DNA from: Flavivirga aquatica
GTDB taxonomy: Bacteria; Bacteroidota; Bacteroidia; Flavobacteriales; Flavobacteriaceae
Length of the DNA stretch: 64,000 nucleotides
Direction: 5' to 3'
Assembly: GCF_001747085.1 (NCBI RefSeq)
Contig: NZ_MDJD01000054.1
Span: 992,001-1,056,000, forward strand
Below the pieces are notes generated by a model. That model had not been told where the DNA came from. It did not search any database and worked only from the letters and a program-made list of their open reading frames with translations. The number at the start of each line of letters is the position of its first letter. The first letter of the stretch is position 1. The position numbers and the translations under genes are program-made. Positions 2,223 to 42,038 of the stretch are shown here, in pieces.

Positions 2223-3818
2223 TTAATTTTTGAAAATCGATCTAACTTCTTTATAAACTCTATCAAAATTAGCTTGTAAATCAGCATCAGAATAGTTCCG
2301 CTGCTTTGTTGGTAGTCGCTTTTCAATTTTAGGCAATTTAAATTGAACTTTTCTGTCCTTTCCATCTGCAAACGTGATAAACTCGCCTTCTTTTAGTCTG
2401 AAAAACACATCAGCTCTAATTTTTGCAACCTCACGCTCTCCTGTTGTAATTCGTGTGTCAAAATTAAGATTATGACCTCTGTTTACGCTTGTGGTTTCTT
2501 TCTTTACAATTTCAAAAAAGCGTTCGTAATATTTAGCTGTGTCTGGATCGTTTACCTTTCCGAAGAATTGATATGATAAATTACTTAAAATTGCTTTACT
2601 TGCTTTGTCGCCATACATCATATCATTCTGTATTTTGTCTTGCATTACATAAATCGTGGCAATATCATAACTTCGCAATGTCGCTGGGATTCTGTGCATA
2701 TTTAATAATCTGATTGTTGGTGCTTCTTCCATTAATAAAAATGAGGCATTTGAATTTCGTACACTCATTTGCTTTGTAATGGTATGAATGATAGTTGCGA
2801 TAATTGGCGAATAGGCTGTTTCATATTTCGGATTATTGACTACTGAAATCGCTAAAGGTTTGTCCTGGCTATTTATGTCGAGCGGAACATCATCTGCGGA
2901 TAAAGCCATAAAAATACGTTGTGTACTTATTTTTTTGAGCGCGTTGGCCAAAGTGCTTTTTACACCAGCGGTTTGTCTGTCGGAATCCTTACCACTAATA
3001 AAAGCGTCAGCCATCGCTCTCGATGTTGTATTCTTACTTAAAAATGCAATTAGACTTGAAGTGTTGAGATATTGGTAAACAGCTATTAAGTGAGGTAATG
3101 TACAATATTGTGGATGCGAGGTTCTTAACTTCCAAATCAATCCACTAATTAAGCCTTCAGCTGCATCATTAAAAAATTTTGTTGTTCCTATACTTCCGGA
3201 TTCTCTTTGTTCTAATAGGTTTTCTATAAGCACTCTAGCGACCTCATTTACGCTTTCTTCATTGGTCATATATCTTGGTGCTATTGGATTCACTCGGTCA
3301 TGAATGTTATCGAATGAAATTACTTTAAAATCAATCTCATTTTTTTCAAATAAAGGAAATGCCATTTCTGTGATTTCAAAGTTTTTATAATCGTGAATTA
3401 CACCAGAAAATTTATGTTTGCTGAAATGCTGAAGGAAATTAAAAACCACGCTTTCAGTTTTTCCACTTCCTGCAGAACCAATAATTGAAGCGCCTCGTTT
3501 GATGTTATTAATTTTGAAACTCCCTCGTTTTACTTTGAAATGAACTTGGTGCTTATCATTAGAATCCAAAATGTCATTCTCCTTGTGAAGAAACACATAT
3601 AATACTGTATTGATGAGCAAAAGCGGACAACCGATATATAGAATCTGGATAACCCAATGCATTAAATACGGACTCAATTTAAAAAGCAATCCTAAACAAA
3701 CTATTGTCAAAATTATGTTTATAAAAAAAGCATATCTTGTTATTTTGAAAAGACTTGAAAACACCAAGCTCATTCCAAACAGTAATCCAATAGTAAATGT
3801 GATTCCTTGTATTTCCAT
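2223..3818 (-). CDS. VirD4/TraG-type coupling ATPase of a mobilization module
   Basis: 531 residues. Several hydrophobic segments in the first 80 residues anchor it in the inner membrane. The Walker A motif GSAGSGKTES is at 114-123, and a Walker B-like segment FLLMEEAPT lies near 355, where the usual Asp is replaced by Met-Glu-Glu. This is the layout of type IV coupling proteins, which bring the relaxase-DNA complex to a mating channel. It follows the relaxase gene at 1-nt spacing (stop 3820, start 3818). No mating-pair genes are in the window, so the channel must come from outside the window or from a helper element. Confidence 0.85.
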   Translation of the reverse strand: MEIQGITFTIGLLFGMSLVFSSLFKITRYAFFINIILTIVCLGLLFKLSPYLMHWVIQILYIGCPLLLINTVLYVFLHKENDILDSNDKHQVHFKVKRGSFKINNIKRGASIIGSAGSGKTESVVFNFLQHFSKHKFSGVIHDYKNFEITEMAFPLFEKNEIDFKVISFDNIHDRVNPIAPRYMTNEESVNEVARVLIENLLEQRESGSIGTTKFFNDAAEGLISGLIWKLRTSHPQYCTLPHLIAVYQYLNTSSLIAFLSKNTTSRAMADAFISGKDSDRQTAGVKSTLANALKKISTQRIFMALSADDVPLDINSQDKPLAISVVNNPKYETAYSPIIATIIHTITKQMSVRNSNASFLLMEEAPTIRLLNMHRIPATLRSYDIATIYVMQDKIQNDMMYGDKASKAILSNLSYQFFGKVNDPDTAKYYERFFEIVKKETTSVNRGHNLNFDTRITTGEREVAKIRADVFFRLKEGEFITFADGKDRKVQFKLPKIEKRLPTKQRNYSDADLQANFDRVYKEVRSIFKN

Positions 3819-3819
3819 G

Positions 3820-4848
3820 TTATATACCTATTGAACCCGATTTAATTGCCACATCCAGACCTCGTTTTAAATACTTTATGGTTTTAAGTGCCAACTGCAC
3901 TTGACTGGTTGGAATACTCGCCATAGGGACTCCAGATTTTGCAAGCATTTTAAAAGCTACTGCTTTTTCACTTGCTGGCAATCCCAATAAAGTTGTGAAG
4001 TACAGTTTTGGATTTTTAATGAAATCTTTTTTCGATTTATAGGATTCTGCATAGTTGCGTTTGTAACCAAAAGTTTTATCAAAAGTGCTTTCGGCTTTTG
4101 TGAAAAACGCATCCCTATCAAAACCACGTTTTACAATTTTACCATGCATCTCAACTTCCGAACCTTTGTATTTAGATCCTGGCGATAAACTCACAGAATT
4201 TGAGGCATCTTTTCGGCTCACGATAATATGAATATGACTTTGATTACCTGCTTTTTTCATTCCTTGAACAATCCGTTTACCATTTTGTTGATGTGGTGCT
4301 TCGGCTTCGAGTTTGCTAATTTGAGATTTCATTTTCTTTATATTCCCATCTAATTGACCTTGTTCAATTTTCCGAATATCAGTTTTTAGCTGAAGTATTT
4401 TAGTGGCAAAAGGTTGGTTCTCTTTTACCTGTTTATCTGTGCCTTTGAATGTTCTTTGATGCTCAATTTTTGCAAAATATTTTATGTCGTCAACAGTTAT
4501 TGGTTTACCATTAATTTCTCGATTAAAGGACGTTGCATAATCGTTCATTATGGCTCTGGTATATTTCTTTAAATCTTCAGAATTATTCTGTAATTTTCTC
4601 AATTCATATTTACTTGGACTAACTGTAATGGAATAAAATTTTGGTTCTTTCTTTTTGAGTTTAGCCGTATTGCCATCGATTTCTTTTACCACATCTTTGG
4701 CTTCAATTTCGTCTCCATATTGATTAAAAAAATGCTCCACATCTTCTTGTTCCAAACCTTGATTTTCTTTCTCCAGATACTCAACAAAATCCACAGAACT
4801 TTGTGAATAATCTCCTCCTAATTTTTGAGCTGTGATTGTGATATACAT
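3820..4848 (-). CDS. mobB: MobB-family relaxase
   Basis: Mobilization relaxase that would nick oriT. I chose the ATG that begins MYITITAQKLGG; an upstream in-frame ATG at 4875 would overlap the preceding gene by 23 nt and adds a sequence unlike the family. The product is 342 residues. The histidine motif HIHIIVSRKD (His 205 and 207 from this start) fits the metal-binding strand of HUH-type relaxases, and DYATSFNRE contains a candidate nucleophile tyrosine. A basic helical stretch is followed by a C-terminal region ending in hydrophobic and basic residues. It lies between the BfmA-type gene and the coupling ATPase, the usual order in Bacteroidota mobilizable elements. Confidence 0.8.
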   Translation of the reverse strand: MYITITAQKLGGDYSQSSVDFVEYLEKENQGLEQEDVEHFFNQYGDEIEAKDVVKEIDGNTAKLKKKEPKFYSITVSPSKYELRKLQNNSEDLKKYTRAIMNDYATSFNREINGKPITVDDIKYFAKIEHQRTFKGTDKQVKENQPFATKILQLKTDIRKIEQGQLDGNIKKMKSQISKLEAEAPHQQNGKRIVQGMKKAGNQSHIHIIVSRKDASNSVSLSPGSKYKGSEVEMHGKIVKRGFDRDAFFTKAESTFDKTFGYKRNYAESYKSKKDFIKNPKLYFTTLLGLPASEKAVAFKMLAKSGVPMASIPTSQVQLALKTIKYLKRGLDVAIKSGSIGI

Positions 4849-4852
4849 AATA

Positions 4853-5245
4853 CTATAATTGATTACTTGAATCATTTTTTTCTACAATTAACACTTCCTT
4901 CTCTTCAACTTCTTTTTCTAAAATCAACTTTTCTTGCTTTGGTTCAAACTCCATAAACAAAGATTGTAACATCGCAGTTGTGGGTTTATCATGGTTCTTT
5001 TCTATGTCTTTTATAATGGCAATTACCGCATTGATTCGCTTCTTAATTTCACTTTCCAATGTTTGCATATTTGGCCCCAAAGTTTCATTTGGGGAAATGC
5101 CATTGTCCTCGAAAAAGTCCAGCATCAGAAGCAAAGTCATCGATTGTGATTTAGATAATTTTTTACAAAACACTCGAAAACGCTCTGCTACTGAGGTTTT
5201 AATACCGAGCTTCTCAAATCGCTCTTTTTCATATCCTTTATCCAT
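4853..5245 (-). CDS. BfmA/BtgA-family mobilization accessory protein
   Basis: 130 residues. It resembles the BfmA/BtgA family: a short N-terminal segment (KGYEKERFEKLGIKTSVAERFRVF) predicted to bind DNA in ribbon- or helix-type fashion, then helices and an acidic tail (EKEVEEKEVLIVEKNDSSNQL). Such proteins bind oriT and help the relaxase. It is the first gene of the three-gene module and directly follows a hairpin-rich non-coding stretch that could hold oriT. Confidence rests on both sequence resemblance and position. Confidence 0.7.
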   Translation of the reverse strand: MDKGYEKERFEKLGIKTSVAERFRVFCKKLSKSQSMTLLLMLDFFEDNGISPNETLGPNMQTLESEIKKRINAVIAIIKDIEKNHDKPTTAMLQSLFMEFEPKQEKLILEKEVEEKEVLIVEKNDSSNQL

Positions 5246-6368: not shown

Positions 6369-6725
6369 TTATTCAGTAGCGTTATCCTCGCCTTTAATTC
6401 CCAAAAGCAGAATTTCATCAATTACCACTTCGGTAACATATCTTTTTTCTCCCTCTTTGGTTTCATAAGAGCGTGAGGTCAATTTACCCTCTAGTGCTAC
6501 TTCTTTTCCTTTGCCTACATATTTTTCTACGATTTCGGCAATCTTTCCCCATGCTACAATATTGTGCCATTGGGTATTTGTCACTTTTTCTCCCTTAGAA
6601 TCTTTGTAAGATTCATTGGTTGCGATTGAAAATTTTGCAACTTTCTTTCCGCTTTCAAGGTTTGTGATTTCTGGCTCGTTTCCTACGTTACCAATTAACT
6701 GTACTTTGTTTCTTAGAGTACTCAT
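6369..6725 (-). CDS. ssb: Single-stranded DNA-binding protein, short element-borne form
   Basis: 118 residues forming one OB fold (STLRNKVQLIGNVGNEPEI...KVAKFSIATNE...WHNIVAWGKIAEIVEKYVGKGKEVALEGKLTSRSY). Chromosomal SSBs are longer and end in an acidic DDxxF-type tail; this one stops at GEDNATE without the final hydrophobic pair. Element-borne SSBs coat transferred single strands and may protect incoming DNA during establishment. It has its own terminator, and a short basic ORF precedes it. Confidence 0.9.
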   Translation of the reverse strand: MSTLRNKVQLIGNVGNEPEITNLESGKKVAKFSIATNESYKDSKGEKVTNTQWHNIVAWGKIAEIVEKYVGKGKEVALEGKLTSRSYETKEGEKRYVTEVVIDEILLLGIKGEDNATE

Positions 6726-6902: not shown

Positions 6903-7382
6903 AGAGCCGACGCTGTTACCTTCTTTTTGTTGCTTGGTGCTGTCCAATATTCAGCTTTGTTTAGACATATAAAAAGTGCGAGGCACGAGCCTGGTTATGC
7001 TGTCGTTCAAAGCTGAATGTTGTTATTTTGCTGTCAAAAAAAGGTATGACGGTGTTGGATTACGGAAGTGAACCTAAATTCTTTGTGAAATACAAAATCA
7101 TAGGAATTGGAACAAAATGCAAATAATTTTTTCCTATTTAGCGGACTTAATTCGCACTTTTTACTTGAAAATGAAGTGTGCCTTTCCAGAGCAACGGAAA
7201 GGGTTAACGGAATGAAAAGTCAAAAGTGTGGATTATGTCCAAGACTTATTATAATGAAGCTCTTTTTCTGGAATGAAGTTTTTACGGAATGAAAGGAAAT
7301 GTGCTGAATGACTTAGGTAAATAAAATGTTGTCAAATATTACTGTACTTTCTAGGTAAGAGTAATCTTTATTTTTAAATTAG
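6903..7382. other. Non-coding stretch upstream of the Wadjet-like operon
   Basis: No convincing gene (a 61-aa frame at 7107-7292 has unnatural composition). The stretch carries a nested dyad at 6949-7018 (outer 11-bp stem ATTCAGCTTTG/CAAAGCTGAAT, inner AGGC-ACGA-GCCT) and three GGAATGAA repeats at 7209-7216, 7270-7277 and 7286-7293. It must contain the promoter of jetA. Confidence 0.5.
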
Positions 7383-8786
7383 GTGATTCACTTAAATTCA
7401 ATTAAAATCGAGTCCGAAATATTAGACATAAATCAATTGTATGACCATCTTGTTCTTACTAAAGAAGAAGGTATGGTAATCTATATCTTAGATTCAAGGA
7501 TTAAAGCAGGTAAAGTTTCTAAATACTTTACTTATCGTGATATTGAGAAGTGCATTAATGAAAGTGCTAAAATAGAAGTTGGCTCTATACCACAAACAGA
7601 AAAAATTGTTAGAAACTTACTTCATTTTTATATTGAAAGACCACCAAATGAAGAGTTGAAATTTGCGCTTACCAACTATGCGAAAAAATTTATCGATTTA
7701 ATCCATAAAAAACTTCATAGTCCACTTAAACATTTTCCACTTAAGAAAACGTTTCAGAAATATGCAGATTTTAAATCTTCGGAAATTGAAACTATAGCTG
7801 ATTTTGAATTATGGTACGATTTACAATTTCACAATAACAGTAAACAAACCATTATTGACCACCTTGAAGCTTTAAAGGATGTTGTCAATTCATCCATAAG
7901 CCGACTTAATGATTTATTGAAAAATGAATCAGAAGACCTTTTGACCATTACAAAAGAATTTACATTAATCTTTGATGAAATTGGGCTAAAGTCCGAGGAA
8001 ATAAAATATACTCTTCGTTTAGGAAACACTCTAAATATTGAAATTGAAAAAGTCGTTGATTTTTTCTATAAACAAATAGATGAGTTTAAGCATCCTGAAA
8101 ATAGTACTGAACGAGAAAAATTTGAAAAACTAAACGATGACTACAAAAAGGCTTTGCATATAAAAACAGAAGTAACTGATTTTTTCTATGATGTAGATTA
8201 TCGATTAAAGCAATTGATGGATAAGTCATTATATGCTAATAACCAATTAACAAATCTTCAAAATAGCTTTAGAAACCAATCAAGGATAAGAATAAATTTA
8301 AAGAAATTATTGAAATTCACATTAGAGCAAGCTTCGTATTCCAATAAACACATTATCACTTTACCTAAATCCTTTCCAATAAAATCAATACCTATTGAGA
8401 GATTTAAATTTATAGAAGTACCTTATTACCACACGTATGGAATTCAGAGAAACGAAATACTACCAGCTCATTACGACAATGAATATGCAAGGTCTGAAAG
8501 AGAAAAGGTAGAAAAAGACCTTTTTAGGCAAGAGAGTGCTGCAAAATTACTTAGAGAGTATAAAAGTATTCTCGAAGAGAAAAAAGAACTGAATTTCACA
8601 GAGCATTTCTATAAAATTCTAGAACGTGAAAATGATAGTGAAATAGCTTTAAGCGTTGGTTTTGACCTTTTCCAATTTGCAAACAGCAATCCCAGATATC
8701 AAATAGAAATTACAAAGGATTTGCCAGAGGCATATTCCGAACAAAAAATATTAGTATGGAACATGAAAATAAACCAAATTCTTTAG
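7383..8786 (+). CDS. jetA: Wadjet-like JetA (kleisin-type subunit)
   Basis: 467 residues, mostly helical, with long heptad-like stretches (about 150-300). No catalytic motif. I assign it by length (JetA proteins are ~450-500 aa) and by position as first gene of an unmistakable four-gene set: MukF-like, MukE-like, MukB/SMC-like, and Toprim nuclease. In Wadjet the JetA dimer bridges the SMC heads and carries JetB. The GTG start at 7383 is used because the next in-frame ATG is about 30 codons in. The 3' end overlaps jetB by 31 nt. This operon runs opposite to almost everything else in the element. Subtype cannot be set without profile searches. Confidence 0.75.
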   Translation: MIHLNSIKIESEILDINQLYDHLVLTKEEGMVIYILDSRIKAGKVSKYFTYRDIEKCINESAKIEVGSIPQTEKIVRNLLHFYIERPPNEELKFALTNYAKKFIDLIHKKLHSPLKHFPLKKTFQKYADFKSSEIETIADFELWYDLQFHNNSKQTIIDHLEALKDVVNSSISRLNDLLKNESEDLLTITKEFTLIFDEIGLKSEEIKYTLRLGNTLNIEIEKVVDFFYKQIDEFKHPENSTEREKFEKLNDDYKKALHIKTEVTDFFYDVDYRLKQLMDKSLYANNQLTNLQNSFRNQSRIRINLKKLLKFTLEQASYSNKHIITLPKSFPIKSIPIERFKFIEVPYYHTYGIQRNEILPAHYDNEYARSEREKVEKDLFRQESAAKLLREYKSILEEKKELNFTEHFYKILERENDSEIALSVGFDLFQFANSNPRYQIEITKDLPEAYSEQKILVWNMKINQIL

Positions 8787-9445
8787 AACATCCTTTTAAG
8801 TTTTTAGAAAATAATGATGTTAAAGAAAAATTTGCAAACCTTAACATAGAACTTTTAAGTGGCAGACACATTCAAAAGGACTCAAATTATTACCTCTACC
8901 AGTTACTAAAAAAATATTTTGAAGAACTAAAGTTCTACTATGCCAACTTCTATGGTTTAGAGTTAGAAAGAGACTATAAAGATGACATCACATTTTATTT
9001 TCTTGATTTTACAGAAGATTCAAAGGGTGCTTTAAGCTCAACGAGAAGACATAAAGAATTATCCAGCTTACAGACCGTAATGGGCATAATGCTATTAAAT
9101 ATGTATTATGACAGGTACTTTGAAAATATTAAGGAAATAACATTTCCAGATATTAAAAAGGAAATTTTATCTGGTGAAAACAGTAAGCATTTCAAAAAAT
9201 TATGGTTTAAAGAAATAAGAGATGAATATTCGCCCAACGAATGGAAGCGTGTGATTACCAATATTAAAAATACTATACGAGATTTTGAAAAATTAGGATG
9301 GGTAGAATCTATGGCTAAAGACGAGGGTGAAGACATCCACTTTAAGCTAAAAGAACCTATTTATCGTTTTCAAAAATTATATGAAAAAGAAATAACCCAC
9401 ATTGATGAATTTATAGAGAACTACTTATTACAGACAAATGATTAA
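8756..9445 (+). CDS. jetB: Wadjet-like JetB (MukE-like, DUF4194-type)
   Basis: 229 residues, the size of JetB/MukE proteins, which form winged-helix subunits clamping the kleisin. The second half shows the expected alternation of helices with a short beta hairpin (WKRVITNIKNTIRDFEKLGWVESM...IHFKLKEPIYRF). The start overlaps the end of jetA by 31 nt, and its stop overlaps the jetC start by 8 nt, implying translational coupling and fixed stoichiometry. The identity rests mainly on synteny and size; sequence similarity by eye is modest. Confidence 0.75.
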   Translation: MEHENKPNSLEHPFKFLENNDVKEKFANLNIELLSGRHIQKDSNYYLYQLLKKYFEELKFYYANFYGLELERDYKDDITFYFLDFTEDSKGALSSTRRHKELSSLQTVMGIMLLNMYYDRYFENIKEITFPDIKKEILSGENSKHFKKLWFKEIRDEYSPNEWKRVITNIKNTIRDFEKLGWVESMAKDEGEDIHFKLKEPIYRFQKLYEKEITHIDEFIENYLLQTND

Positions 9446-12400
9446 ATACCCACGAATATATTCTTTTTCTACAGTTGGAATCATAATGCATTTTAACCAA
9501 GATTATTTATTACACCCTATTAGGACAGATTTCACAGGAAAGAACGGAATAGGGAAATCACTTATTGCCGACCTTTTTCAAATTCTTTTTATCTCAGATA
9601 AGCAAAAAATAGCGTTTGGTACTGAAAGCTTCAAGAACAATACGCGATTACTTCACACACTTCCTTATAAAACTTCAGACGCTTATATTTTTATTAATAT
9701 TGAAGTAGAAAAAGATAGCTTTATCACTTTAGGCGTTAACATACCCAATAAAAAAAGCAGACCACTCAAATCATTTTGGATTCTTAATAAAGCTCATGGT
9801 ATAAATGATAATAATGAATTAAGTGATTTAAGCATTGCTAAAAACAACATACCATTTTTTAAAGATTTTATTCATGATAATAGTATCCCACCAATAGAGA
9901 AACTTGCCATTAAACTAAGGGATGAAAAACAAATATATCTTAGAAGCTTTTCAGATAAGAATCAAAAAAATGAACTTTACACTTTCCTATTTGAAAATAG
10001 AGTATTACCAATCGACCTTTCTATAGAATCAAATCTTGATGCTTTCGCAAAAGTCATACAGTCATTCTCGAAAGCAAAAACTCTAGACACGGATAGTGAC
10101 GATAGCTTAAAAAACTTTCTTTTTGAAGATAAAACAGATAGCCTTCAATCTGAATATGAAAAACATAAAACAGACCTAGAGAAACTAATTAATGATTACA
10201 AAGACCTTGAAGAATTAATTACCGACATTGAGAACAAACAAGAACGTCTTACTAATTTAAGTTCTTTAAACAGCCTCTATCTCAATTCATTTAAAGAACA
10301 TCTTTTAGTAGATTTTACATATACTGAAGACGAAATTTCAAAAAAGAATCAGTCATTAAAGGATATTAATACTCAAGTATTTGAAGAAAATAAACAGATT
10401 AAGTCATTACAAAAAAACAATCCAAAAATTCAAAAATCGGCTCAAAAAGCAAAAAAAGATTATGACAATCTTGATAAGACCATTAAACACCTAAAAGAAT
10501 ACAGCGAAATTTATAATAAAGTAGAAGCATTAAAATCTCAGATAAATGAATTAGAAAATATCAAGTTACCAGCAATTGAAAATGAGGCAATCGTCACTAT
10601 TGAAAATATCGAAGCTTACGAAATTGCTGAAATAAAACGTAGAATATCACATTTTACAAGTGTTTTTGAAAATTATGGTTCTCTTGAAAGCATCGAGCAA
10701 ACGATTGAATTACAAAAAGACGCACTTGATAACCGTAAGAGTTCACTTAAATCAAAAAAAGCGGACATTCGCGAATTACTGAATCTGCTTTCTAAAAACA
10801 AGAAAAATTCTCTATTTGCTCAACTTTTATCTCAACAAAAAACATTGACTGAAAGTCAAGAGGCCATCCTATTTGCAATTTTAAAAAATATTCATTGGAA
10901 GAAGCCAAAAGACGTAACTGCTGGTATTAAATATGTTGAAAGTTTAGAATTTATGAATGAAAAATTCATTGAAAATGATTCTGCAAATAATGGGTATTGG
11001 TTTAATTTGGGCGGTCTAAAAGAGTTTGTACCATCAACCAAAGAAAAACAGCTATTTAAAGATAAAGATAAACTTGAGAAAGCACTTTCAAATCAAACAA
11101 CAAAGCTGAACAACGAAATTAGTAGTATTGACAAAGAACTTTCACAGATTGAAGCTTTTATTAGAGGCGAAAAATTTGAACAAAAATCAATACACATTGA
11201 CCAAAAGTTAGACCAAAGGCTTAATGATTTTTCTAAGTTGAAAGATTTAAAACTGTCATTAGGATTGATTCAAAACCTGGAAGTTAAAAAACAGGGTTTA
11301 AACACTCAAATTTCTAAAGAAGAAAAAGAAATAAAAAAAGTCGAACTAAAAATTAGTGTTCCAATTGAAAAAAAGAACCTTTCTAATCAATTGGAAAAAC
11401 TTCAAGAAGAGTTAGAATCTATTGATAAAAATGAACGTGAATTAACTGCTCAATATAATACAGACAAAAGCAAATTGGAAGAAAAATTAAAGTTCTTACC
11501 TAGGCTTAAAAATCAACCGTCGGAATTAGAAAAATCCCTTACAGATTTAAATAATCAAAAGAATAAGATAGTTGCTGATTTTTCTTCATATTTTCCAGAT
11601 TTAGAAATCGAAAATATAGATAAAACTGAATACAAAAGCATTGAAAGAAATCCTTTATTTACAGAATTTCAATCAAATAAAACCAATTATATAGGCGACT
11701 ACAAAGCAATTATAAGTTCATTTGAACAAATAAAAAACGACCCAGAAATTAACGAACAAATTGCAAAAGGAACGTATAATTTTGAAATTCTTGAGCGTGT
11801 TCTTTTAGGACCTAAAATAAAACACTCAGCTAATATTTCAGAAGAACTCAAACAACTCAATAGCAGTAGATTTAGAATGTTTGGTGCCATACACGAAACA
11901 ATGCTCAGTATTTTTAAGCAAACCAAAGGAAAGTTTGATGAATACCACGAGACCATAAAAGCTTTAAATAAATTTTTTAAAGGAAAGAAAATTAGTGGTA
12001 AATATTATTTTCAATTGGAATTTAATCAGCCATCAGATTTTGATATTAACTGGATTAATGATTTACAAGCCACTTCCCAACAAGTGTATAGTGCAGGCGA
12101 ACTTCCTCTGGGTGAATCTGTAGAAAGTTTTGTCGAGAATTTTTTCATGAAAACAACAAGTTTTAATCAAAAAATTAAATTTTCCAATTTACTAGACCCG
12201 AAAACGTATTTTGAGTTAAGAACAAAATTCACGGATGAGTTTGACAATGAAAAAGCTGGTGGTAGCACAGGCGAAAGTTATGCAGCTATTGTACTGCTAG
12301 GAATTGGTAGATTATCAGTAGTTTTAAACGCAGATTTACCAGGACTTCGATTCCTTATTTTGGAAGAAGTTTCAAATTTAGACAACTTGAATTTTAGTAC

Positions 12401-12611
12401 TTTCCCAAATATTGCTGAAGAATTTGGCTATCAAATCCTTACAATGACACCACGACCATTCGGCTCAGATACCGAACAAGGTTGGTATTTACATCATTTA
12501 ATAGAGGGTGCTGGCGATAAAAATATTAATTACCCAATTCCAAATAGTTACTTTAAAACAAATGAAGGTAGACAAGATTTAGAAACCTATCTAAAAGCAC
12601 AATCAAATTAA
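9438..12611 (+). CDS. jetC: Wadjet-like JetC (SMC/MukB-type ATPase)
   Basis: 1057 residues. The Walker A GKNGIGKS is at 34-41. Two long coiled-coil arms (about 240-420 and 560-720) enclose a non-coil segment around 430-560 that would be the hinge. The ABC signature region is GGSTGES (from 941), and the Walker B LRFLILEEVSNLD follows near 970-982. Both nucleotide-binding halves are therefore present and look active. In Wadjet this subunit extrudes DNA loops and recognises small circular plasmids, which JetD then cuts. Length fits JetC; SbcC-type proteins have a zinc hook, which is absent here. jetD follows after 2 nt. Confidence 0.88.
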   Translation: MIKYPRIYSFSTVGIIMHFNQDYLLHPIRTDFTGKNGIGKSLIADLFQILFISDKQKIAFGTESFKNNTRLLHTLPYKTSDAYIFINIEVEKDSFITLGVNIPNKKSRPLKSFWILNKAHGINDNNELSDLSIAKNNIPFFKDFIHDNSIPPIEKLAIKLRDEKQIYLRSFSDKNQKNELYTFLFENRVLPIDLSIESNLDAFAKVIQSFSKAKTLDTDSDDSLKNFLFEDKTDSLQSEYEKHKTDLEKLINDYKDLEELITDIENKQERLTNLSSLNSLYLNSFKEHLLVDFTYTEDEISKKNQSLKDINTQVFEENKQIKSLQKNNPKIQKSAQKAKKDYDNLDKTIKHLKEYSEIYNKVEALKSQINELENIKLPAIENEAIVTIENIEAYEIAEIKRRISHFTSVFENYGSLESIEQTIELQKDALDNRKSSLKSKKADIRELLNLLSKNKKNSLFAQLLSQQKTLTESQEAILFAILKNIHWKKPKDVTAGIKYVESLEFMNEKFIENDSANNGYWFNLGGLKEFVPSTKEKQLFKDKDKLEKALSNQTTKLNNEISSIDKELSQIEAFIRGEKFEQKSIHIDQKLDQRLNDFSKLKDLKLSLGLIQNLEVKKQGLNTQISKEEKEIKKVELKISVPIEKKNLSNQLEKLQEELESIDKNERELTAQYNTDKSKLEEKLKFLPRLKNQPSELEKSLTDLNNQKNKIVADFSSYFPDLEIENIDKTEYKSIERNPLFTEFQSNKTNYIGDYKAIISSFEQIKNDPEINEQIAKGTYNFEILERVLLGPKIKHSANISEELKQLNSSRFRMFGAIHETMLSIFKQTKGKFDEYHETIKALNKFFKGKKISGKYYFQLEFNQPSDFDINWINDLQATSQQVYSAGELPLGESVESFVENFFMKTTSFNQKIKFSNLLDPKTYFELRTKFTDEFDNEKAGGSTGESYAAIVLLGIGRLSVVLNADLPGLRFLILEEVSNLDNLNFSTFPNIAEEFGYQILTMTPRPFGSDTEQGWYLHHLIEGAGDKNINYPIPNSYFKTNEGRQDLETYLKAQSN

Positions 12612-12613
12612 AA

Positions 12614-13534
12614 ATGAATTGGACTGTCCTTAAATCATTACACCAACTCTATATAGAGCGAAAGACTAAAATCAAACCTTCACTAACGGAAGATTCTTCC
12701 ATTCAATTATTGATATCAAATAAAGAAATCATTGAGGTAGGCAAATATTATCTTCCAGGAACACATTACGATTCATATTATACTAAACATCGTTTAAATC
12801 TATTCCCAATTTATTTTGACTTTTTAGAAGTTAATAACCTTTTAACCAAACGATTTGAAGAAGAGGATATAAAAACTCTAATTGAATTACAATCAAAAAA
12901 ACAAAATGATAATCTAATACCTACTAGAGAACAACTAATTGAAGCACAAGAAACCGTTAGAGGATTCTCAACAATGTTTTTTAAAAATGACAAATATTTA
13001 GATAATAAAGACTCGTTAATTAAAGCCATTAATCAAATACTTGATATTACACTTGTAGAGAACAAAGACCAACAGTATCTATACATACTTCAATGTGAAA
13101 AACCAGAATTAATTGTTCTTTGCGAAAATTTAGACTTTTTAAGAAAAGACAAAATGCCTCGTGAGAATAATTATGAACTTTGGTACGCAGGTGGAAAAAA
13201 TGTTCCCAAATTAAAATACGCAGATACGAGAGGACTTCCCATTTTTTATTCAGCGGATTGGGATGCAGATGGTTTAGAAATTTATGAGTTAGCCAAAGAA
13301 AAAATTCCGGAACTTCAACTTTTATTCCCAACGGCCATATCAAAAAGTATTGTTGATACTGAACATAGTAGTCATTGGAAAAATCAAGATAAACCAGAAG
13401 CACTTTCAAATTTAAGTTCTCATTTGTATTCAGAGAAGTACAAAGCAAAGATTAAAAAACTTATAGAGACGAATCATTGGATTATTGAGGAATCTAACGA
13501 CTTAAAAAAAATGATTCAAAACAGTTTCTCTTGA
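12614..13534 (+). CDS. jetD: Wadjet-like JetD (Toprim nuclease)
   Basis: 306 residues. The C-terminal half is a Toprim domain: strand ELIVLCEN with Glu171, then IFYSADWDADGLEIY with Asp215, Asp217 and Asp219, matching the acidic triad of topoisomerase-primase nucleases. In Wadjet, JetD cleaves plasmid DNA that the JetABC motor has looped. It is shorter than most JetD proteins (~380-400 aa), so the N-terminal arm is reduced, which may mark a divergent subtype. The 3' end overlaps by 19 nt the end of the convergent gene at 13516. Confidence 0.82.
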   Translation: MNWTVLKSLHQLYIERKTKIKPSLTEDSSIQLLISNKEIIEVGKYYLPGTHYDSYYTKHRLNLFPIYFDFLEVNNLLTKRFEEEDIKTLIELQSKKQNDNLIPTREQLIEAQETVRGFSTMFFKNDKYLDNKDSLIKAINQILDITLVENKDQQYLYILQCEKPELIVLCENLDFLRKDKMPRENNYELWYAGGKNVPKLKYADTRGLPIFYSADWDADGLEIYELAKEKIPELQLLFPTAISKSIVDTEHSSHWKNQDKPEALSNLSSHLYSEKYKAKIKKLIETNHWIIEESNDLKKMIQNSFS

Positions 13535-14498: not shown

Positions 14499-16295
14499 CT
14501 AATCGTTTAATTCCTGAATTTTCTTTTCAAGTTTCTCTATGCGCTCTTTCAAACGTGCTTCACGCTTGTTTCTCTCTTCTGCATATTCCTTTTCAATATT
14601 GGCAATTTTAGTTTTATAATACCCTTGCATCGCATTGTAGAATGAAATGTTCGTTAAGTTATTAACGTGATTGCTTTCGCCAAAATGTACTTGCTTGGTA
14701 AGGATATACCGAATCAACTTATAAAAGGTTTCCTTTTTGAAATTCTTTTTGAAGTTCTCGACAGTTTCCACATCAGTCTTTTTAGATGTGTTACCCAATA
14801 ATTTTGAAAAGTGTTTTTGCCGACCTACATAATCCACATTGTTTTCATATAGGGTTAATGAGAAAGCTACCATTTCATCTACCGAAAGTGATTTCTTATT
14901 TTCGATATAATCGGTTTGACGAATCATCTGAACTATGTCTTCAAATTGCTTGTTGTGCTCAATATGTCGCTTTCTGATTTCTCTTTCGTTGATTTTAACG
15001 ATTTGCTCTTCAGGCGAACACTCTGCCATTTTTCTATTTGCTAACGGTTCAGAGTATGTAGAATTTACAGTTTTTGAATCTTCTATTACCTTCACAAAGA
15101 TTGCTTTGTGAACATACGTTTTTGGATGAAACATAATACCTTTTACGAATCCATTTTCTTTTGCGGAATTATACACTTCCAATTCTTCCTTGTAATTATC
15201 AACCGCTTCTTCAAGTTCAGCTTTCAGCTCATCTTCAGAATAGTCGTAATGTTGGTATTCTGTCTTAATTGCTTCCATTGTAGGTTCAATAGGTTCCTCG
15301 ATTATTTCAACATCGTCCAGAAGATAGACTTTCAATCCATTTTTTTCCAATTGCGAAATAATGAGCTGGTTATTCTCGTCATCTGCCCAGTATTTGCGAA
15401 TTTCAGGAATCAACAGCATATTCTCTTTCTTCGATTTTTCTATCAGGTTCAAAAATGACTTGCTTTTCTTCGTTTCATAACAAGCTGATTTTGTACACAC
15501 CATTTTATCATCGCCGAATAAATTGCCTTGATTTGCTGCGTTGAACGGACATGTTGTACAGGCACCAGCTTTTGTTATTAATTTTTCATCGACCACATCG
15601 AAAGGTGCATTCTCCAAATCATAAGTCTGGTTTTTAATCATCTGATTAATTTGATGGGCATTAAAATCCTCTCCCATTGTTTCCAGCATCATTTGCTGTT
15701 CCTCTGGCTCGAAAAGCGCCACACCTACACCTAACGAAATCGTCATTTCGCCATTACGAACAAAGACTTTAAAACCTTCAATTAGACCTGCTAATTTTAA
15801 ACGTTGCCTTACAAAGTTTTCTGTTCTTCCTAACCGTTTTGAAATCTCCGTTGGCGCATATTTTTCGCTCAGGAATGCTACAGCTTCGGCTTCTTCAGTA
15901 GGTTCAACATCTTGTCTTTGCAGATTTTCGATAATTTGAATTTCCAGAACATCATTATTATCGAATGCTCTAACGATGCTCGGAATGGTTTTCTTTTTCG
16001 CCAATTTGCTTGCGCGATATCGACGTTCGCCCATGACGATGATGTAATCTTTTCCAGATTTTCGGACCGTAATAGGTTGTAGGACACCGTGTTCTTCGAT
16101 GCTTTCAGCCAGTTGTTTTAGAGCTTCCTCGTTAAAGGTTTTTCTTGGTTGCATTGGGTCAGGAATAATCCTTCCGATAGGTAGTTCTTGAACTTGAAGT
16201 CCAATGGCGCCTTGTGTCAATTTCTTCTTGACTTCATTTTTCATGGTGGCTGTTGCCTTTCCGTTTTTGCTTGTAGTACTTGCTTTTGTTGTCAT
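14499..16295 (-). CDS. ParB/RepB/Spo0J-family protein, large form with cysteine cluster
   Basis: 598 residues. The ParB nuclease-fold domain covers about 35-125, with the CTP-binding box GERRYRAS at 89-96 and ENLQRQDV at 123-130, then a helix-turn-helix (about 147-170: TEISKRLGRTENFVRQRLKLAG). A four-cysteine cluster near 245-275 (CTTCPFNAANQG...CTKSACYETK) may bind metal. The C-terminus is a coiled coil (ANIEKEYAEERNKREARLKERIEKLEKKIQEL). It is almost twice the length of chromosomal ParB, and no ParA is nearby, so partition is unproven; regulation or DNA binding on the element is equally possible. Confidence 0.85.
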   Translation of the reverse strand: MTTKASTTSKNGKATATMKNEVKKKLTQGAIGLQVQELPIGRIIPDPMQPRKTFNEEALKQLAESIEEHGVLQPITVRKSGKDYIIVMGERRYRASKLAKKKTIPSIVRAFDNNDVLEIQIIENLQRQDVEPTEEAEAVAFLSEKYAPTEISKRLGRTENFVRQRLKLAGLIEGFKVFVRNGEMTISLGVGVALFEPEEQQMMLETMGEDFNAHQINQMIKNQTYDLENAPFDVVDEKLITKAGACTTCPFNAANQGNLFGDDKMVCTKSACYETKKSKSFLNLIEKSKKENMLLIPEIRKYWADDENNQLIISQLEKNGLKVYLLDDVEIIEEPIEPTMEAIKTEYQHYDYSEDELKAELEEAVDNYKEELEVYNSAKENGFVKGIMFHPKTYVHKAIFVKVIEDSKTVNSTYSEPLANRKMAECSPEEQIVKINEREIRKRHIEHNKQFEDIVQMIRQTDYIENKKSLSVDEMVAFSLTLYENNVDYVGRQKHFSKLLGNTSKKTDVETVENFKKNFKKETFYKLIRYILTKQVHFGESNHVNNLTNISFYNAMQGYYKTKIANIEKEYAEERNKREARLKERIEKLEKKIQELND

Positions 16296-17693: not shown

Positions 17694-19658
17694 TTAATCA
17701 ACCCATTTCATGCGCTGTAATCTAACAGCATTCAATATTGCTAACAATGCAACACCAACATCTGCAAAAACCGCTTCCCACATAGTTGCTAAACCACCTG
17801 CACCTAATATTAGAACAATTACTTTTACACCGAATGCTAATATGATATTTTGCCATACAATTTTGCGAGTGGAACGACTAATTTTAATAGCCCTAACTAC
17901 TTTTGAAGGTTGGTCTGTTTGAATAATAACATCTGCGGTTTCTATTGCGACATCACTTCCCAATCCACCCATTGCAATTCCTACATCACTTGCTGCTAAA
18001 ACTGGTGCATCATTAATGCCATCGCCTATAAAAGCAATCTTATTATTAGGGTTTTGTTTTAAAATTTCAACTTCATTTAGCTTATCTTCTGGTAACAAAC
18101 CGCCTTTAGCGATTTCGATATTTAACTCGGAAGCTACTTTTTGAGTAATGGAATCCTTATCGCCAGAGAGCATCATTATATTTTTGACACCTACTTTATG
18201 TAATGCTGTAATCGTTTCTTTTGCATCCTCTTTTAATTCATCTGCAATAACCACATAGCCTGCAAATGTATTGTCTATAGATACCAAAACAATCGATTCT
18301 ACAATAGTTTCTGTTTCTTCTAAAACATTAATATTATTGGCTGTCATTAGGGCTTTGTTACCAACTAAAACAGTCTTACCGTTTACGATACCTTTTAGGC
18401 CTTTACCTGCTATTTCAGATACTTCTGAAGCTTCATAATCTGTACCTTCATCTTTATATTCTAAAATGGCTTTTGCGATTGGATGTGTGGATTGTTCTTC
18501 CATCGCCATCAGGTATTTCATAAACTCTTTCTCATCCCAATTGATAGCTTCAATCTTTTTAATTTTAAAGACGCCTTTCGTAACCGTCCCTGTCTTATCC
18601 ATTACCAATGTATTTATCTTGGTCATGGCATCTAAAAATGAAGCGCCTTTAAACAAAATTCCGTTTTTTGAAGCTGCTCCCAATCCCCCGAAATAACCCA
18701 ACGGAATGGATATAACCAAAGCACAAGGACAAGAAATTACCAAGAAAATTAAGGCTCTGTATAACCAATCTCTAAACACATAATCATCTACAAAAAAGTA
18801 TGGTAAAAATGTAACTGCAATAGCTAGAAACACAACTATTGGCGTATAAATTCGAGCAAATTGTCTAATGAATAATTCTGTTTTCGATTTACGAGCTGTT
18901 GCATTCTGCACCATATCGAGGATACGTGCAATGGAACTATCCTTAAATTCTTTGGTGGTTTCTATTTCAATAACTCCATCCATATTAATACTTCCTGCAA
19001 ATACTTTTTCGCCTTTTGCAATCGTATCAGGTTTGCTTTCGCCTGTCAATGCCGCTGTATTAAATGAGCCTTTTTCGGAAAGCAGAATACCATCTAAAGG
19101 GATTTTTTCTCCAACACGGACTTGAACTTTTTCTCCAATTTCAACCGTTTCTGGGCTTACAGAAATGTAATCATTATTGCGATATACCAAAGCTTCATTA
19201 GGACGAACATCGAGCAAAGCTTTAATATTACCCTTTGCTTTATTTACTGCTGCACTCTGAAATAATTCTCCAACCGCATAGAATAACATTACTGCTACTC
19301 CTTCAGGGTATTCGCCAATCACGAATGCACCTATGGTTGCTATAGACATTAAGAAAAACTCTGTAAAAACATCTCCTTTTTTAATGCTTTTCCACCCTTC
19401 CTTTATAACAGGAAAACCTACGGGAATATATGCCATAACATACCAAAGTATGCGAATCCATCCTTTAAAATATGGGAACATATCGAAATAGTCGATTGCA
19501 ATACCAATCATTAACATTACAAAACTGAAAATTGCCGGCAAATAAATATTAAACTTCCCTATGTTCTCTGAACTACTATGATTGTGACCATCGTTTTGAT
19601 TGTGATCTATTTCAGAATTTGGTTTTATATCTCGTAAATTGACTTTCTTTTTTTTCAT
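17694..19658 (-). CDS. ZntA/CadA-type heavy-metal P-type ATPase
   Basis: 654 residues, an inner-membrane exporter of divalent soft metals (Zn/Cd/Pb/Co class). The TGES actuator loop is at 205-208, the CPC metal site at 310-312, and the phosphorylation loop DKTGT at 354-358. The last membrane segments hold KVIVLILGAGG and FADVGVALL; a Lys and an Asp there are typical of the Zn class. The usual N-terminal HMA domain is missing; instead there is a short His-rich lead (HNQNDGHNHSS). It is the last gene of the merTP operon, behind a strong terminator. Confidence 0.9.
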   Translation of the reverse strand: MKKKKVNLRDIKPNSEIDHNQNDGHNHSSSENIGKFNIYLPAIFSFVMLMIGIAIDYFDMFPYFKGWIRILWYVMAYIPVGFPVIKEGWKSIKKGDVFTEFFLMSIATIGAFVIGEYPEGVAVMLFYAVGELFQSAAVNKAKGNIKALLDVRPNEALVYRNNDYISVSPETVEIGEKVQVRVGEKIPLDGILLSEKGSFNTAALTGESKPDTIAKGEKVFAGSINMDGVIEIETTKEFKDSSIARILDMVQNATARKSKTELFIRQFARIYTPIVVFLAIAVTFLPYFFVDDYVFRDWLYRALIFLVISCPCALVISIPLGYFGGLGAASKNGILFKGASFLDAMTKINTLVMDKTGTVTKGVFKIKKIEAINWDEKEFMKYLMAMEEQSTHPIAKAILEYKDEGTDYEASEVSEIAGKGLKGIVNGKTVLVGNKALMTANNINVLEETETIVESIVLVSIDNTFAGYVVIADELKEDAKETITALHKVGVKNIMMLSGDKDSITQKVASELNIEIAKGGLLPEDKLNEVEILKQNPNNKIAFIGDGINDAPVLAASDVGIAMGGLGSDVAIETADVIIQTDQPSKVVRAIKISRSTRKIVWQNIILAFGVKVIVLILGAGGLATMWEAVFADVGVALLAILNAVRLQRMKWVD

Positions 19659-19688
19659 TTGGTTTCCTTACTTATTGAAATTATTTTG

Positions 19689-19898
19689 TTAGCAGCAGCA
19701 GTTTTTTCCTTTTTGAATTGGCGGACATGGAACCGTTCCAAAAGAACAATACACACAACAATCTCCTTCATTCGGTTTCAAAACCGTTTTACATTTCTCG
19801 CATTCGTAGAAAAACTGACAAGCGTTTGTTGGCATCTCTTCAACCTTTTTATGTTTGCAATTTGGACAAGTAATTTCTGATTTTAATATGACTTCCAT
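19689..19898 (-). CDS. GDCCVxC-motif cysteine-rich protein
   Basis: 69 residues, 13 of them cysteines. The motif GDCCVYC is at 45-51, preceded by CPNC (11-14) and CEKC and followed by a terminal CCC. This defines the GDCCVxC family, small soluble metal-binding proteins found beside mercury or heavy-metal transporters. It probably binds or passes metal between MerTP and the ATPase. The stop of merTP and the start here overlap by 1 nt. Confidence 0.85.
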   Translation of the reverse strand: MEVILKSEITCPNCKHKKVEEMPTNACQFFYECEKCKTVLKPNEGDCCVYCSFGTVPCPPIQKGKNCCC

Positions 19899-20494
19899 TA
19901 ATTCTGTTTTTTGTTAATTACTTTATAACCTGTTGCGTTAATTGCAATTTCAACTTCAGTTTCATTGGTTTTAGTTCTGTCGAACTCAACAACTGCATTT
20001 CCATTTTCGTAGGACGCTTTTGAGCTTAGAATTCCATTAAGTTTATTTACTTCGTGATTTACATGCTCTTCACAACTCGTACAAGTCATTCCGCTAATTT
20101 GAAATTTAGTTGTTTTAATGTCCGATTTGTCAACTACGACTATTTGCTTCTCTGTATTTGAGTAAAAAAATTTTGAATAAAATGGAAAAGCCAACATCAC
20201 AATTGCAAAAACAGTTACTATTCCTAAAAACGCTTTTGACTGTATAAATTTCGAGTTTTCTTCAGTATCACATTCGCAGTCAATTTTCTTTTGAGGTCTT
20301 AGTTTTTGATACCAAGCAAAACCAAGAATTAAAATTGTTAACCCTATTAGATAAGGTCTAAAAGGTTCTATCCAAGAAAACATTGAAGCAATCCCGCTTG
20401 TACCTGCAATCATTGCTAAAAAAGGTGTTATACAACACAATGAAGCTGCGATTGCTGAAATTAAACTCGTCCCTATTAATTTACTTTTCATCAT
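19898..20494 (-). CDS. merTP: MerTP fusion: MerT-type transporter with C-terminal HMA domain
   Basis: 198 residues. The MerT part has the paired cysteines Cys20-Cys21 in the first membrane helix and further helices to about 115, with CEC (73-75) in the loop. The MerP-like HMA domain follows, with GMTCTSC (Cys138, Cys141). MerT/MerP move Hg(II) inward in mer operons, but no merA or merR is present, so another soft metal is as likely. The promoter carries operator site A. The GDCCVxC and ZntA-type genes follow in the same operon. Confidence 0.82.
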   Translation of the reverse strand: MMKSKLIGTSLISAIAASLCCITPFLAMIAGTSGIASMFSWIEPFRPYLIGLTILILGFAWYQKLRPQKKIDCECDTEENSKFIQSKAFLGIVTVFAIVMLAFPFYSKFFYSNTEKQIVVVDKSDIKTTKFQISGMTCTSCEEHVNHEVNKLNGILSSKASYENGNAVVEFDRTKTNETEVEIAINATGYKVINKKQN

Positions 20495-20512
20495 TATTGT
20501 ACTTAATTAAAA

Positions 20513-20520
20513 CAAAGATG
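20513..20520 (-). promoter_or_regulatory. Probable -7 box of the merTP promoter
   Basis: CATCTTTG on the minus strand resembles the Bacteroidota -7 element TAnnTTTG. It lies 18 nt upstream of the merTP ATG, with the operator dyad just upstream. It differs from consensus only at the first base. Confidence 0.5.
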
Positions 20521-20531
20521 AGTTAAAATAC

Positions 20532-20550
20532 AATGCAACGGAAGTGCATT
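20532..20550. promoter_or_regulatory. Candidate Fur-family operator, site A
   Basis: AATGCAACGGAAGTGCATT, an imperfect dyad (AATGCA...TGCATT) located upstream of the merTP -7 box. It shares 14 of 19 positions with the site at 26946-26964 and sits at the same distance from the -7 box, give or take 1 bp. Confidence 0.65.
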
Positions 20551-20966
20551 TATAATCCACTACATTTATCACAAACACCTTTTACAACCAAGTTTATGTC
20601 TTCGGAAATAAAGCCATTTGGCACTTTTATTTGTGGAATTTTATGCTCGGTAAGACAAACCGTTTCGTTGCAGTTATTACAATGAAAATGTAAGTGTAAA
20701 TCGGTTTCAATATCACAGTTACAGCCTTTTTCACAAAGCGCATATTTAGTAATGCCTGTGCCATCATCTATTTGATGTACAATCGTACTTTCTTCAAATG
20801 TTTTTACTGTTCTATACAATGTAGTTCTATCTGCTTTATCAAAAGCATTTTCGATATCACTTAATGTTACTGCTACTTGTTTCTCAGCAAGAAATTTATA
20901 AATTAATAAACGCATTGCCGTAACACGTATATTTTTTGACTCTAATAATTGTTCTATGGTTTGCAT
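20550..20966 (-). CDS. Fur-family metalloregulator
   Basis: 138 residues. The N-terminal winged helix has the usual RVTAMRLLIYKFL and ADRTTLYRTVKTFEES recognition region. The metal-binding half has LHLHFHC (His91, 93, 95) and two CxxC pairs (Cys96/99 and Cys132/135) that would form the structural zinc site. It is the last gene of the czcA-czcB operon, 2 nt after czcB, so it should be made together with the pump it likely represses. The sensed metal (zinc is the simplest guess) cannot be read from sequence. Confidence 0.85.
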   Translation of the reverse strand: MQTIEQLLESKNIRVTAMRLLIYKFLAEKQVAVTLSDIENAFDKADRTTLYRTVKTFEESTIVHQIDDGTGITKYALCEKGCNCDIETDLHLHFHCNNCNETVCLTEHKIPQIKVPNGFISEDINLVVKGVCDKCSGL

Positions 20967-20968
20967 AA

Positions 20969-22174: not shown

Positions 22175-22178
22175 TTTC

Positions 22179-26513: not shown

Positions 26514-26610
26514 AGAATTATAGTTATAATGAATTTATAAATAAAGAATAGTTACCAAAGAGTATCGATGGTAGCATAGATTTATAATACACCTGCGAAG
26601 CAGGTGCTCA

Positions 26611-26922
26611 TTACACTTGTGGTGGTTGTAAAACGGAATTCGTGAAGTCTTTTTCTGAACCGCTTAGGTATAAAACATCTTTTGTGGAAATAAAAGATAA
26701 TTCTAATTTTAAATCCGGTATATCAAAATGCACAGCACTTACATGGCAGCATTGACAAATACAAAAAGGCGAACATAAATCTGAATCTTGATGTTGATGG
26801 TCATTGTCCATTCCTTGTGAAATTTCTGTTTGAACCTCATTATCAAGCGTAACATTATCTTCGCAGGGTGCTAAATTAAGCGCGAAAATATAAATTGATA
26901 ATATAAAAGCTAAAAATTTCAT
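26611..26922 (-). CDS. DUF6660-like small secreted His/Cys protein
   Basis: 103 residues. A signal peptide (MKFLAFILSIYIFALNLAPC) is followed by a metal-ligand-rich stretch: DNDHQHQDSD then CSPFCICQCCHV. I read it as DUF6660-like, a small family next to czcA genes in flavobacteria. It is probably a periplasmic metal-binding or sensor protein. It is the first gene of the operator-B operon; the -7 box lies only 6 nt upstream of the ATG, so the mRNA may be leaderless or nearly so. Confidence 0.7.
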   Translation of the reverse strand: MKFLAFILSIYIFALNLAPCEDNVTLDNEVQTEISQGMDNDHQHQDSDLCSPFCICQCCHVSAVHFDIPDLKLELSFISTKDVLYLSGSEKDFTNSVLQPPQV

Positions 26923-26927
26923 CGTAG

Positions 26928-26935
26928 CAAAGATA
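26928..26935 (-). promoter_or_regulatory. -7 box of the czcA operon promoter
   Basis: TATCTTTG on the minus strand, a full match to TAnnTTTG, 5 nt before the start codon at 26922. Operator site B lies just upstream. Confidence 0.6.
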
Positions 26936-26945
26936 TAAATTATTT

Positions 26946-26964: not shown

Positions 26965-26989
26965 TAACGTTAGTATGATTTTTTTATAA

Positions 26990-27020: not shown

Positions 27021-27069
27021 AATTTATTATTAATGGTCATGGTCTGAATGATCCTCTTCCTTTATCTCC

Positions 27070-41955: not shown

Positions 41956-41965
41956 ATTTTGCTAG

Positions 41966-42038
<73 letters not shown>

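What the first reader, a model, noticed from the sequence alone, without database searches (positions are those of the whole stretch)
7383..13534. Divergent Wadjet-like (JetABCD) operon carried as cargo on a mobilizable element
Seen: four overlapping or abutting plus-strand genes (467, 229, 1057, 306 aa) with an SMC-type ATPase (Walker A at 34-41, GGSTGES from 941, Walker B near 970) and a Toprim protein (Glu171, Asp215/217/219). Known: Wadjet systems have this gene content and cut plasmid DNA. Inference: a shortened JetD and poor visible similarity of JetA/JetB suggest an unusual subtype. The element itself carries a relaxase, so it may use Wadjet against competing plasmids.
Basis: partly seen in the sequence, partly recalled or inferred. 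Interest (0 to 1): 0.72.

Follow-up and report, generated by a model that had tools for sequence, protein, structure and literature searches.

The report
Plasmid-cutting condensin carried by conjugative element
A flavobacterium carries, inside a 61-kb self-transfer element sitting in a tRNA gene, a complete four-part DNA-looping and DNA-cutting machine of the Wadjet/MksBEFG kind; it belongs to a Bacteroidota branch that a standard defence library misses, and it should by rule also endanger its own carrier.

Summary
Four overlapping or abutting plus-strand genes (7383-13534) encode kleisin (MksF/JetA), KITE (MksE/JetB), SMC ATPase (MksB/JetC) and a Toprim nuclease (MksG/JetD). MksE matches Pfam at 92 bits; the AlphaFold model of gene 4 finds MksG of C. 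glutamicum first; that of gene 1 finds MukF. All 16 homologous loci found in 300 other Flavobacteriaceae genomes keep the order F-E-B-G. It is an MksBEFG/Wadjet-group system, but outside the Wadjet I-III profiles of PADLOC. The branch has a short MksG (280-325 aa) and, in the window's half (61 of 85 MksB), Glu instead of Asp in Walker B. The carrier is not merely mobilizable: it is a 61,065-bp ICE-like element (47-bp att repeat at tRNA-Met, integrase, conjugation genes). A sister ICE has 26 bp where the window has 6,189 bp: the operon is discrete cargo. Twelve of 17 MksB-positive Flavobacteriaceae genomes have it beside genes of this ICE family, at two positions. Relatives elsewhere abut Gabija. 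All four genes are under purifying selection. Likely function: cutting of small circular DNA. Activity is untested. Its 61-kb circle falls in the published Wadjet size range, which poses a testable self-immunity question.

The parts
7383..8786 (+). mksF (JetA-like) kleisin, 467 aa, GTG start
   Evidence: AF2 model (pLDDT 70) best PDB match MukF 9gm7_C E=3.2e-6, prob 1.00; no Pfam/PADLOC/NCBIfam match
8756..9445 (+). mksE (JetB-like) KITE protein, 229 aa
   Evidence: Pfam MksE PF21980, 91.9 bits against cut-off 27; 22 of 22 diverse homologues match it; MukE structures matched by profile E=2e-10
9438..12611 (+). mksB (JetC-like) SMC ATPase, 1057 aa: Walker A 34-41, C-loop GGSTGES 941-947, Walker B LILEEV 973-978 (Glu-Glu)
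   Evidence: Walker A Lys and catalytic Glu conserved (Glu in 85 of 85)
12614..13534 (+). mksG (JetD-like) Toprim nuclease, 306 aa; metal site E171, D215, D217; E292/E293 near the C-terminus
   Evidence: AF2 model (pLDDT 85) best PDB matches MksG 8b7f E=3.2e-6, topo VI A 2zbk, JetD 7til; JetD_C in 14 of 15 homologues, below cut-off for the window's own protein
7326..13514 (.). operon cassette: 6,189 bp present here, replaced by 26 bp in a sister ICE
   Evidence: blastn with G154:C5 ICE (L133), flanks 92% identical on both sides
9863..13021 (.). 3.16-kb tract of about 86% identity to the Hyunsoonleella homologue (L045) inside flanks that are 99.9-100% identical: exchange of most of mksB and the 5' part of mksG
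2223..3818 (-). VirD4/TraG-type coupling protein of the ICE
   Evidence: T4SS-DNA_transf PF02534 E=1.8e-17
3820..4875 (-). putative relaxase (DUF5712 family, HIH motif)
   Evidence: PF18976 E=6e-114; relaxase role inferred from motif and position
4853..5245 (-). MobC-like mobilization protein
   Evidence: overlaps the relaxase gene; conserved next to it in sister ICEs; name inferred from position
6369..6725 (-). ICE single-strand-binding protein: left border of the cargo site
   Evidence: conserved in sister ICEs L125-L134
13516..14085 (-). 189-aa ICE protein: right border of the cargo site; its 3' end overlaps the end of mksG
14499..16295 (-). ParB-like protein of the ICE
   Evidence: ParB_N PF02195 E=1e-30
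41962..42008 (.). 47-bp direct repeat at one ICE end, exact copy of G000:C54 972897-972943 (L040 897-943)
   Evidence: element length 61,065 bp
41965..42038 (-). tRNA-Met (CAT), integration site of the ICE at its 3' end
   Evidence: ARAGORN

Best explanation
The operon is a complete MksBEFG (Wadjet-group) restriction machine of a Bacteroidota branch, carried as a discrete cargo cassette by a 61-kb integrative and conjugative element (ICE). Shown here by sequence and predicted fold: kleisin, KITE, SMC ATPase and Toprim nuclease genes in one conserved four-gene unit with intact catalytic residues under purifying selection; insertion as a 6.2-kb block between the ICE's SSB and 189-aa genes; ICE ends at tRNA-Met. 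Inferred from the solved relatives: two MksB-MksE-MksF motors load on DNA, extrude it in an ATP-driven way, meet each other when a circle has been reeled in completely, and then let the MksG dimer make a double-strand cut with its E171/D215/D217 metal site. Small plasmids and other small circles are destroyed, while the chromosome, which cannot be reeled in fully, is spared. For the ICE this would remove competitors in a host it has settled in. How the ICE's own 61-kb circle escapes is not known.
For: MksE match 91.9 bits, 22 of 22 homologues. Gene 4 fold: MksG and JetD among the top hits, JetD_C in 14 of 15 homologues, alignment with a canonical JetD over the Toprim core. Gene 1 fold: MukF. 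Gene 3: MukB-like motifs. Fixed order F-E-B-G in all 16 homologous loci and in most of 80 named loci. dN/dS 0.05-0.13. Defence context: among 127 neighbours of 29 other loci, 8 match GajA and 8 match GajB at E<1e-10, with Gabija-like pairs directly abutting F or G in L038, L071, L073, L079 and L096. ICE: 47-bp att repeat, integrase, TraG/TraM-type conjugation genes. Published: MksG of C. glutamicum needs E236 and D279, spaced like E171 and D215 here (PMC10123090); Wadjet cuts circles below about 100 kb and spares linear DNA (PMC10586767).
Against: No activity data. No match to PADLOC JetA and almost none to JetB models. Walker B carries Glu-Glu, so the ATPase cycle may differ. The N-terminal half of MksG does not align with that of a canonical JetD. 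A Rep_3 plasmid-initiator survey showed no depletion in carriers (2 of 17 against 6 of 284; both positive carriers are incomplete genomes). Some relatives have MksBEF without MksG, so a chromosome-organising role may exist in the wider family.
Confidence: 0.8

Rival explanations
1. It is chiefly a condensin that helps the ICE or the host chromosome (folding, segregation, ICE maintenance together with the ICE's ParB), and MksG is an accessory enzyme that does not restrict foreign DNA.
For: The best family match of the KITE is MksE, named from chromosome-organising MksBEF. The ICE carries a ParB-like gene 1 kb away. An MksG-less MksBEF clade exists in the same family tree.
Against: MksG with an intact metal site is kept in nearly the whole window clade under dN/dS of about 0.12. 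The operon is patchy (17 of 301 genomes) and is a cassette absent from a sister ICE, which is unlike housekeeping. Relatives sit next to Gabija. Most ICEs of this family lack it (68 of 79 VirB4-positive genomes have no MksB), so the ICE does not need it.
Confidence: 0.1
2. It is a defence system aimed mainly at phages, or at circularising phage genomes and rival ICE circles, rather than at plasmids.
For: Gabija-like neighbours. Any small DNA circle should serve as substrate under the shape-sensing model (PMC10586767).
Against: Characterised relatives act on plasmids (PMC10123090, PMC10586767). No direct evidence here for either target.
Confidence: 0.08
3. The operon is a decaying or inactive remnant on the ICE.
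For: In two Winogradskyella loci mksB is broken, in one of them by an IS3-like insertion, so loss does occur.
Against: Here all four frames are open, the catalytic residues are intact, dN/dS is 0.05-0.13 and overlaps between genes are conserved.
Confidence: 0.02

Closest known systems
MksBEFG of Corynebacterium glutamicum (Wadjet type I; MksG structure 8b7f)
   Same: Same four subunits; MksG Toprim fold is the top structural match of gene 4; the metal-binding pair E236/D279 has nearly the same spacing as E171/D215 here (43 and 44 residues)
   Different: Gene 4 is 306 aa against 368 residues in the structure; PADLOC type I models do not recognise genes 1 and 2
Wadjet JetABCD types I-III (as modelled in PADLOC-DB 2.0.0)
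   Same: Operon content kleisin-KITE-SMC-Toprim; weak JetD3/JetD1 matches (E=1e-4 and 3e-3)
   Different: No JetA match in 24 homologues, weak JetB1 match in 3 of 22; JetC matched only in the coiled coil. A canonical operon in another Flavobacteriaceae genome (L152) is found at E=9e-43 and has Asp-Glu in Walker B and a 380-aa JetD
MksBEF / MukBEF condensins
   Same: MksE is the best family match; kleisin fold nearest MukF; MukB-like C-loop
   Different: MukBEF and MksBEF lack the nuclease; here MksG is present and its catalytic residues are conserved
Plasmid-borne E. coli JetABCD (e.g. 8q72)
   Same: A Wadjet-group system carried by a mobile element
   Different: That one is on a plasmid; this one is on an ICE integrated in tRNA-Met, and this branch had no match in 72,556 plasmid records
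Wadjet-group survey of PMC7617805 (254,733 bacterial genomes)
   Same: Its iterative MksB/E/F/G profiles probably include this branch
   Different: Its operon list (Data S1) could not be read here, so whether this branch and its ICE carriage are noted there is unknown

Membership tests
Wadjet/MksBEFG group | Co-directional operon of kleisin, KITE, SMC and Toprim nuclease | tested here: met
Wadjet/MksBEFG group | KITE subunit of MksE/MukE/JetB type | tested here: met
   PF21980 at 91.9 bits; 22 of 22 homologues
Wadjet/MksBEFG group | Kleisin subunit (MukF/JetA type) | tested here: met
   By predicted fold only: MukF 9gm7_C E=3.2e-6; model confidence moderate; no sequence-profile match
Wadjet/MksBEFG group | SMC ATPase with Walker A, C-loop and Walker B | tested here: met
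   Walker A and catalytic Glu present; Walker B Asp replaced by Glu throughout the window's clade
Wadjet/MksBEFG group | Toprim nuclease MksG/JetD with Glu and Asp metal ligands | tested here: met
Wadjet/MksBEFG group | Restriction of small circular DNA in vivo; ATP-dependent cleavage in vitro | not testable with these tools
   needs expression and assay
Wadjet types I-III as modelled in PADLOC | JetA and JetB match the type I, II or III models | tested here: not met
   no JetA match, JetB1 weak in 3 of 22 homologues only
Wadjet types I-III as modelled in PADLOC | JetD of about 350-400 aa with the known N-terminal domain | tested here: not met
   280-325 aa in all homologues; only the Toprim part aligns with a 380-aa JetD
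MukBEF/MksBEF condensin | No MksG nuclease next to the operon | tested here: not met
   mksG follows mksB after 2 nt
Integrative and conjugative element | Integrase, att direct repeats at a tRNA gene, relaxase, coupling protein, conjugation apparatus | tested here: met
   47-bp repeat, 61,065 bp; integrase, TraG P-loop, TraM, VirD4, DUF5712; G017 carries a related ICE at the same tRNA-Met
Integrative and conjugative element | Excision and transfer | not testable with these tools
   an empty chromosomal site was sought in G019, but the contig ends 850 bp away

The most novel reading that the evidence does not exclude
The branch is a mechanistically distinct Wadjet subtype: an SMC motor with a Glu-Glu Walker B and a shortened MksG, which a 61-kb ICE uses as an exclusion weapon against other circular elements while its own circle of the same size class is spared by a marking, timing or inhibitor mechanism still to be found.
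Probability: 0.2. Interest if true: 0.75.

Novelty: new variant of a known kind. Interest (0 to 1): 0.5.

Why it matters
The branch is spread through Bacteroidota (at least 147 loci confirmed in one scan) yet missed by PADLOC-DB 2.0.0, so defence counts in this phylum are probably too low. It repeatedly rides one ICE family, in two lineages and at two positions, which ties an anti-circle nuclease to an element that must itself become a circle to move. Since published Wadjets cut circles below about 100 kb, the 61-kb ICE raises the self/non-self question of Wadjet in a natural and testable form. The clade-wide Asp-to-Glu change in Walker B gives a natural variant of the SMC ATPase site.

Tried and rejected
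Phage or plasmid carriage: no match of MksB in 50,697 phage or 72,556 plasmid records, MksG no match in plasmids and none in viral contigs. PDB searches by sequence for MksG and MksF gave only chance matches; fold comparison resolved both. The PADLOC JetC and NCBIfam SMC matches of gene 3 are coiled-coil matches and were not used. Empty chromosomal att site: not shown, because the only candidate contig ends. Depletion of Rep_3 plasmids in carriers: none seen, underpowered. Mere 'mobilizable element' was rejected because integrase, att repeats and T4SS genes are present.

Full report
OBSERVATION.

IDENTITY OF THE SUBUNITS. Gene 2 matches Pfam MksE at 91.9 bits (cut-off 27), then MukE and DUF4194; all 22 diverse homologues match MksE, and its profile finds MukE structures. 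Gene 1 has no sequence match in Pfam, PADLOC or NCBIfam, but its AlphaFold model (mean pLDDT 70) finds MukF first (E=3.2e-6, probability 1.00; JetA at 5.8e-3), so it is a kleisin by predicted fold. Gene 3 has the SMC motifs with a MukB-like C-loop. Gene 4 matches JetD_C only weakly, but 14 of 15 homologues do, and its model (pLDDT 85) finds MksG of C. glutamicum (8b7f, E=3.2e-6), topoisomerase VI A and JetD of P. aeruginosa as the best structures in the PDB. The TM-scores are low (about 0.3), as can be expected when the two domains are set at different angles, so this supports homology of the fold rather than a close match. Hhalign aligns only the Toprim part with the 380-aa JetD of a canonical operon. 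The spacing of E171 and D215 (44 residues) is nearly that of E236 and D279 (43), which MksG needs for cutting (PMC10123090).

A COHERENT FAMILY. In an even sample of 301 Flavobacteriaceae genomes, 17 have the SMC, and all 16 homologous loci besides the window keep F-E-B-G in this order. A scan of species genomes confirmed 147 related loci; the best 80 are nearly all Bacteroidota. A maximum-likelihood tree of 85 MksB proteins splits into 61 and 24. The 61, with the window, have Glu at the Walker B Asp position and the 24 have Asp. Six MksBEF loci without MksG form one clade within the 24. PADLOC sees no JetA in 24 homologues and JetB1 weakly in 3 of 22, although a canonical Wadjet operon in another Flavobacteriaceae genome is found by the JetC1 profile at E=9e-43. 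The family is thus a branch of the Wadjet/MksBEFG group outside the Wadjet I-III profiles of that library. A published survey of the whole Wadjet group exists (PMC7617805) and may contain it; its supplement could not be read here.

THE CARRIER. The 3' end of tRNA-Met (41965-42038, minus strand) is repeated exactly over 47 bp at G000:C54 972897-972943, 61,065 bp away. Next to the far repeat lies a tyrosine integrase; between the repeats are a TraG-type ATPase, TraM and other conjugation genes, a VirD4 coupling protein and a DUF5712 protein taken to be the relaxase. Another genome, G017, has a related ICE of about 66 kb at the same tRNA-Met. So this is an apparently complete ICE. An empty chromosomal site was not found.

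CARGO. A sister ICE in G154 aligns to both sides of the operon at 92% identity but has 26 bp in place of window 7326-13514. In other ICEs of the family the same gap between SSB and ParB holds metal-efflux or unrelated genes, so it is a cargo site. Of the 17 genomes with MksB, 8 have it within 20 kb of the ICE's VirB4 and 4 more beside the ICE's DnaC/RepA genes; genome-level association with VirB4 gives Fisher p=7e-4 (genomes are not independent by descent, so this is a rough figure). The window's lineage sits between SSB and the 189-aa gene. The other lineage sits near the DnaC gene, in several loci (for example L108, L123) between an amidase gene and DnaC. The same ICE family has therefore taken up MksBEFG at least twice.

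SELECTION AND DEFENCE CONTEXT. dN/dS against the nearest homologues is 0.05-0.13 for the four genes where divergence suffices. Against the Hyunsoonleella copy the operon is 99.9-100% identical except for a 3.16-kb tract (9863-13021) at about 86%, a recombinational exchange of most of mksB with the start of mksG. Among 127 neighbours of 29 other loci, 8 match GajA and 8 match GajB; Gabija-like pairs directly abut the operon in L038, L071, L073, L079 and L096.

MECHANISM. Shown: gene content, fold class, catalytic residues, constraint, carriage. Inferred from solved relatives: loop extrusion by a double MksBEF motor, collision on a circle that is fully reeled in, and cutting by MksG. Published Wadjets spare linear DNA and circles above about 100 kb (PMC10586767). 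The excised ICE, 61 kb, is inside that range, and nicking alone should not protect it, because DNA topology is reported not to decide restriction. Either the ICE has a means of self-protection, or its circle is too short-lived, or this branch measures size differently. This is the most testable open point.

LIMITS. Nothing here shows activity. A survey of Rep_3 plasmid initiators found 8 of 301 genomes positive, 2 of the 17 carriers against 6 of the other 284, and so no depletion, with little power. The Walker B change is a sequence fact without known consequence. The relaxase label rests on motif and position.

Noticed in passing
window 37336-41802: Three minus-strand ORFs (DUF4238 protein of 367 aa, then 561 and 558 aa without Pfam match) next to the att end of the ICE: a second cargo module of unknown function, possibly another defence system.
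   Followed up: partly
window 17694-36724: Large metal-efflux cargo of the ICE: P-type ATPases, CusA/CusB-like RND pumps, Fur-type regulator. Similar sets occur in sister ICEs, in two of them within the SSB-ParB gap.
   Followed up: partly
window 9863-13021: Sharp-edged tract of 86% identity against L045 within otherwise 99.9% identical DNA: exchange of most of mksB together with the 5' part of mksG, leaving mksF, mksE and the Toprim part of mksG untouched.
   Followed up: yes
L082 12190-12400; L091 11638 onward: In two Winogradskyella loci mksB is broken; in L082 an IS3-type transposase begins right after the break. No mksG was found within 10 kb.
   Followed up: partly
L098, L099, L100, L102, L113, L114: A clade of MksB proteins of about 1160 aa whose loci have no mksG: possible chromosomal MksBEF condensins of Bacteroidota derived from, or ancestral to, MksBEFG.
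   Followed up: partly
L073 3933-7981, L096 3917-7965, L079 3931-7994, L038 2204-6216, L071 14107-18101: Gabija-like AAA/Toprim plus UvrD-helicase gene pairs directly abutting MksBEFG, upstream in four loci and downstream in one: a recurrent pairing of two Toprim nuclease systems.
   Followed up: partly
L152 28-5996: A canonical Wadjet operon (JetA part, 193-aa JetB, 1133-aa JetC, 380-aa JetD) in another Flavobacteriaceae genome (G010).
   Followed up: no
L087: A member of the family on a 6.6-kb contig labelled Candidatus Altiarchaeales (archaeon); it falls among Bacteroidota sequences and may be a mis-binned contig.
   Followed up: no
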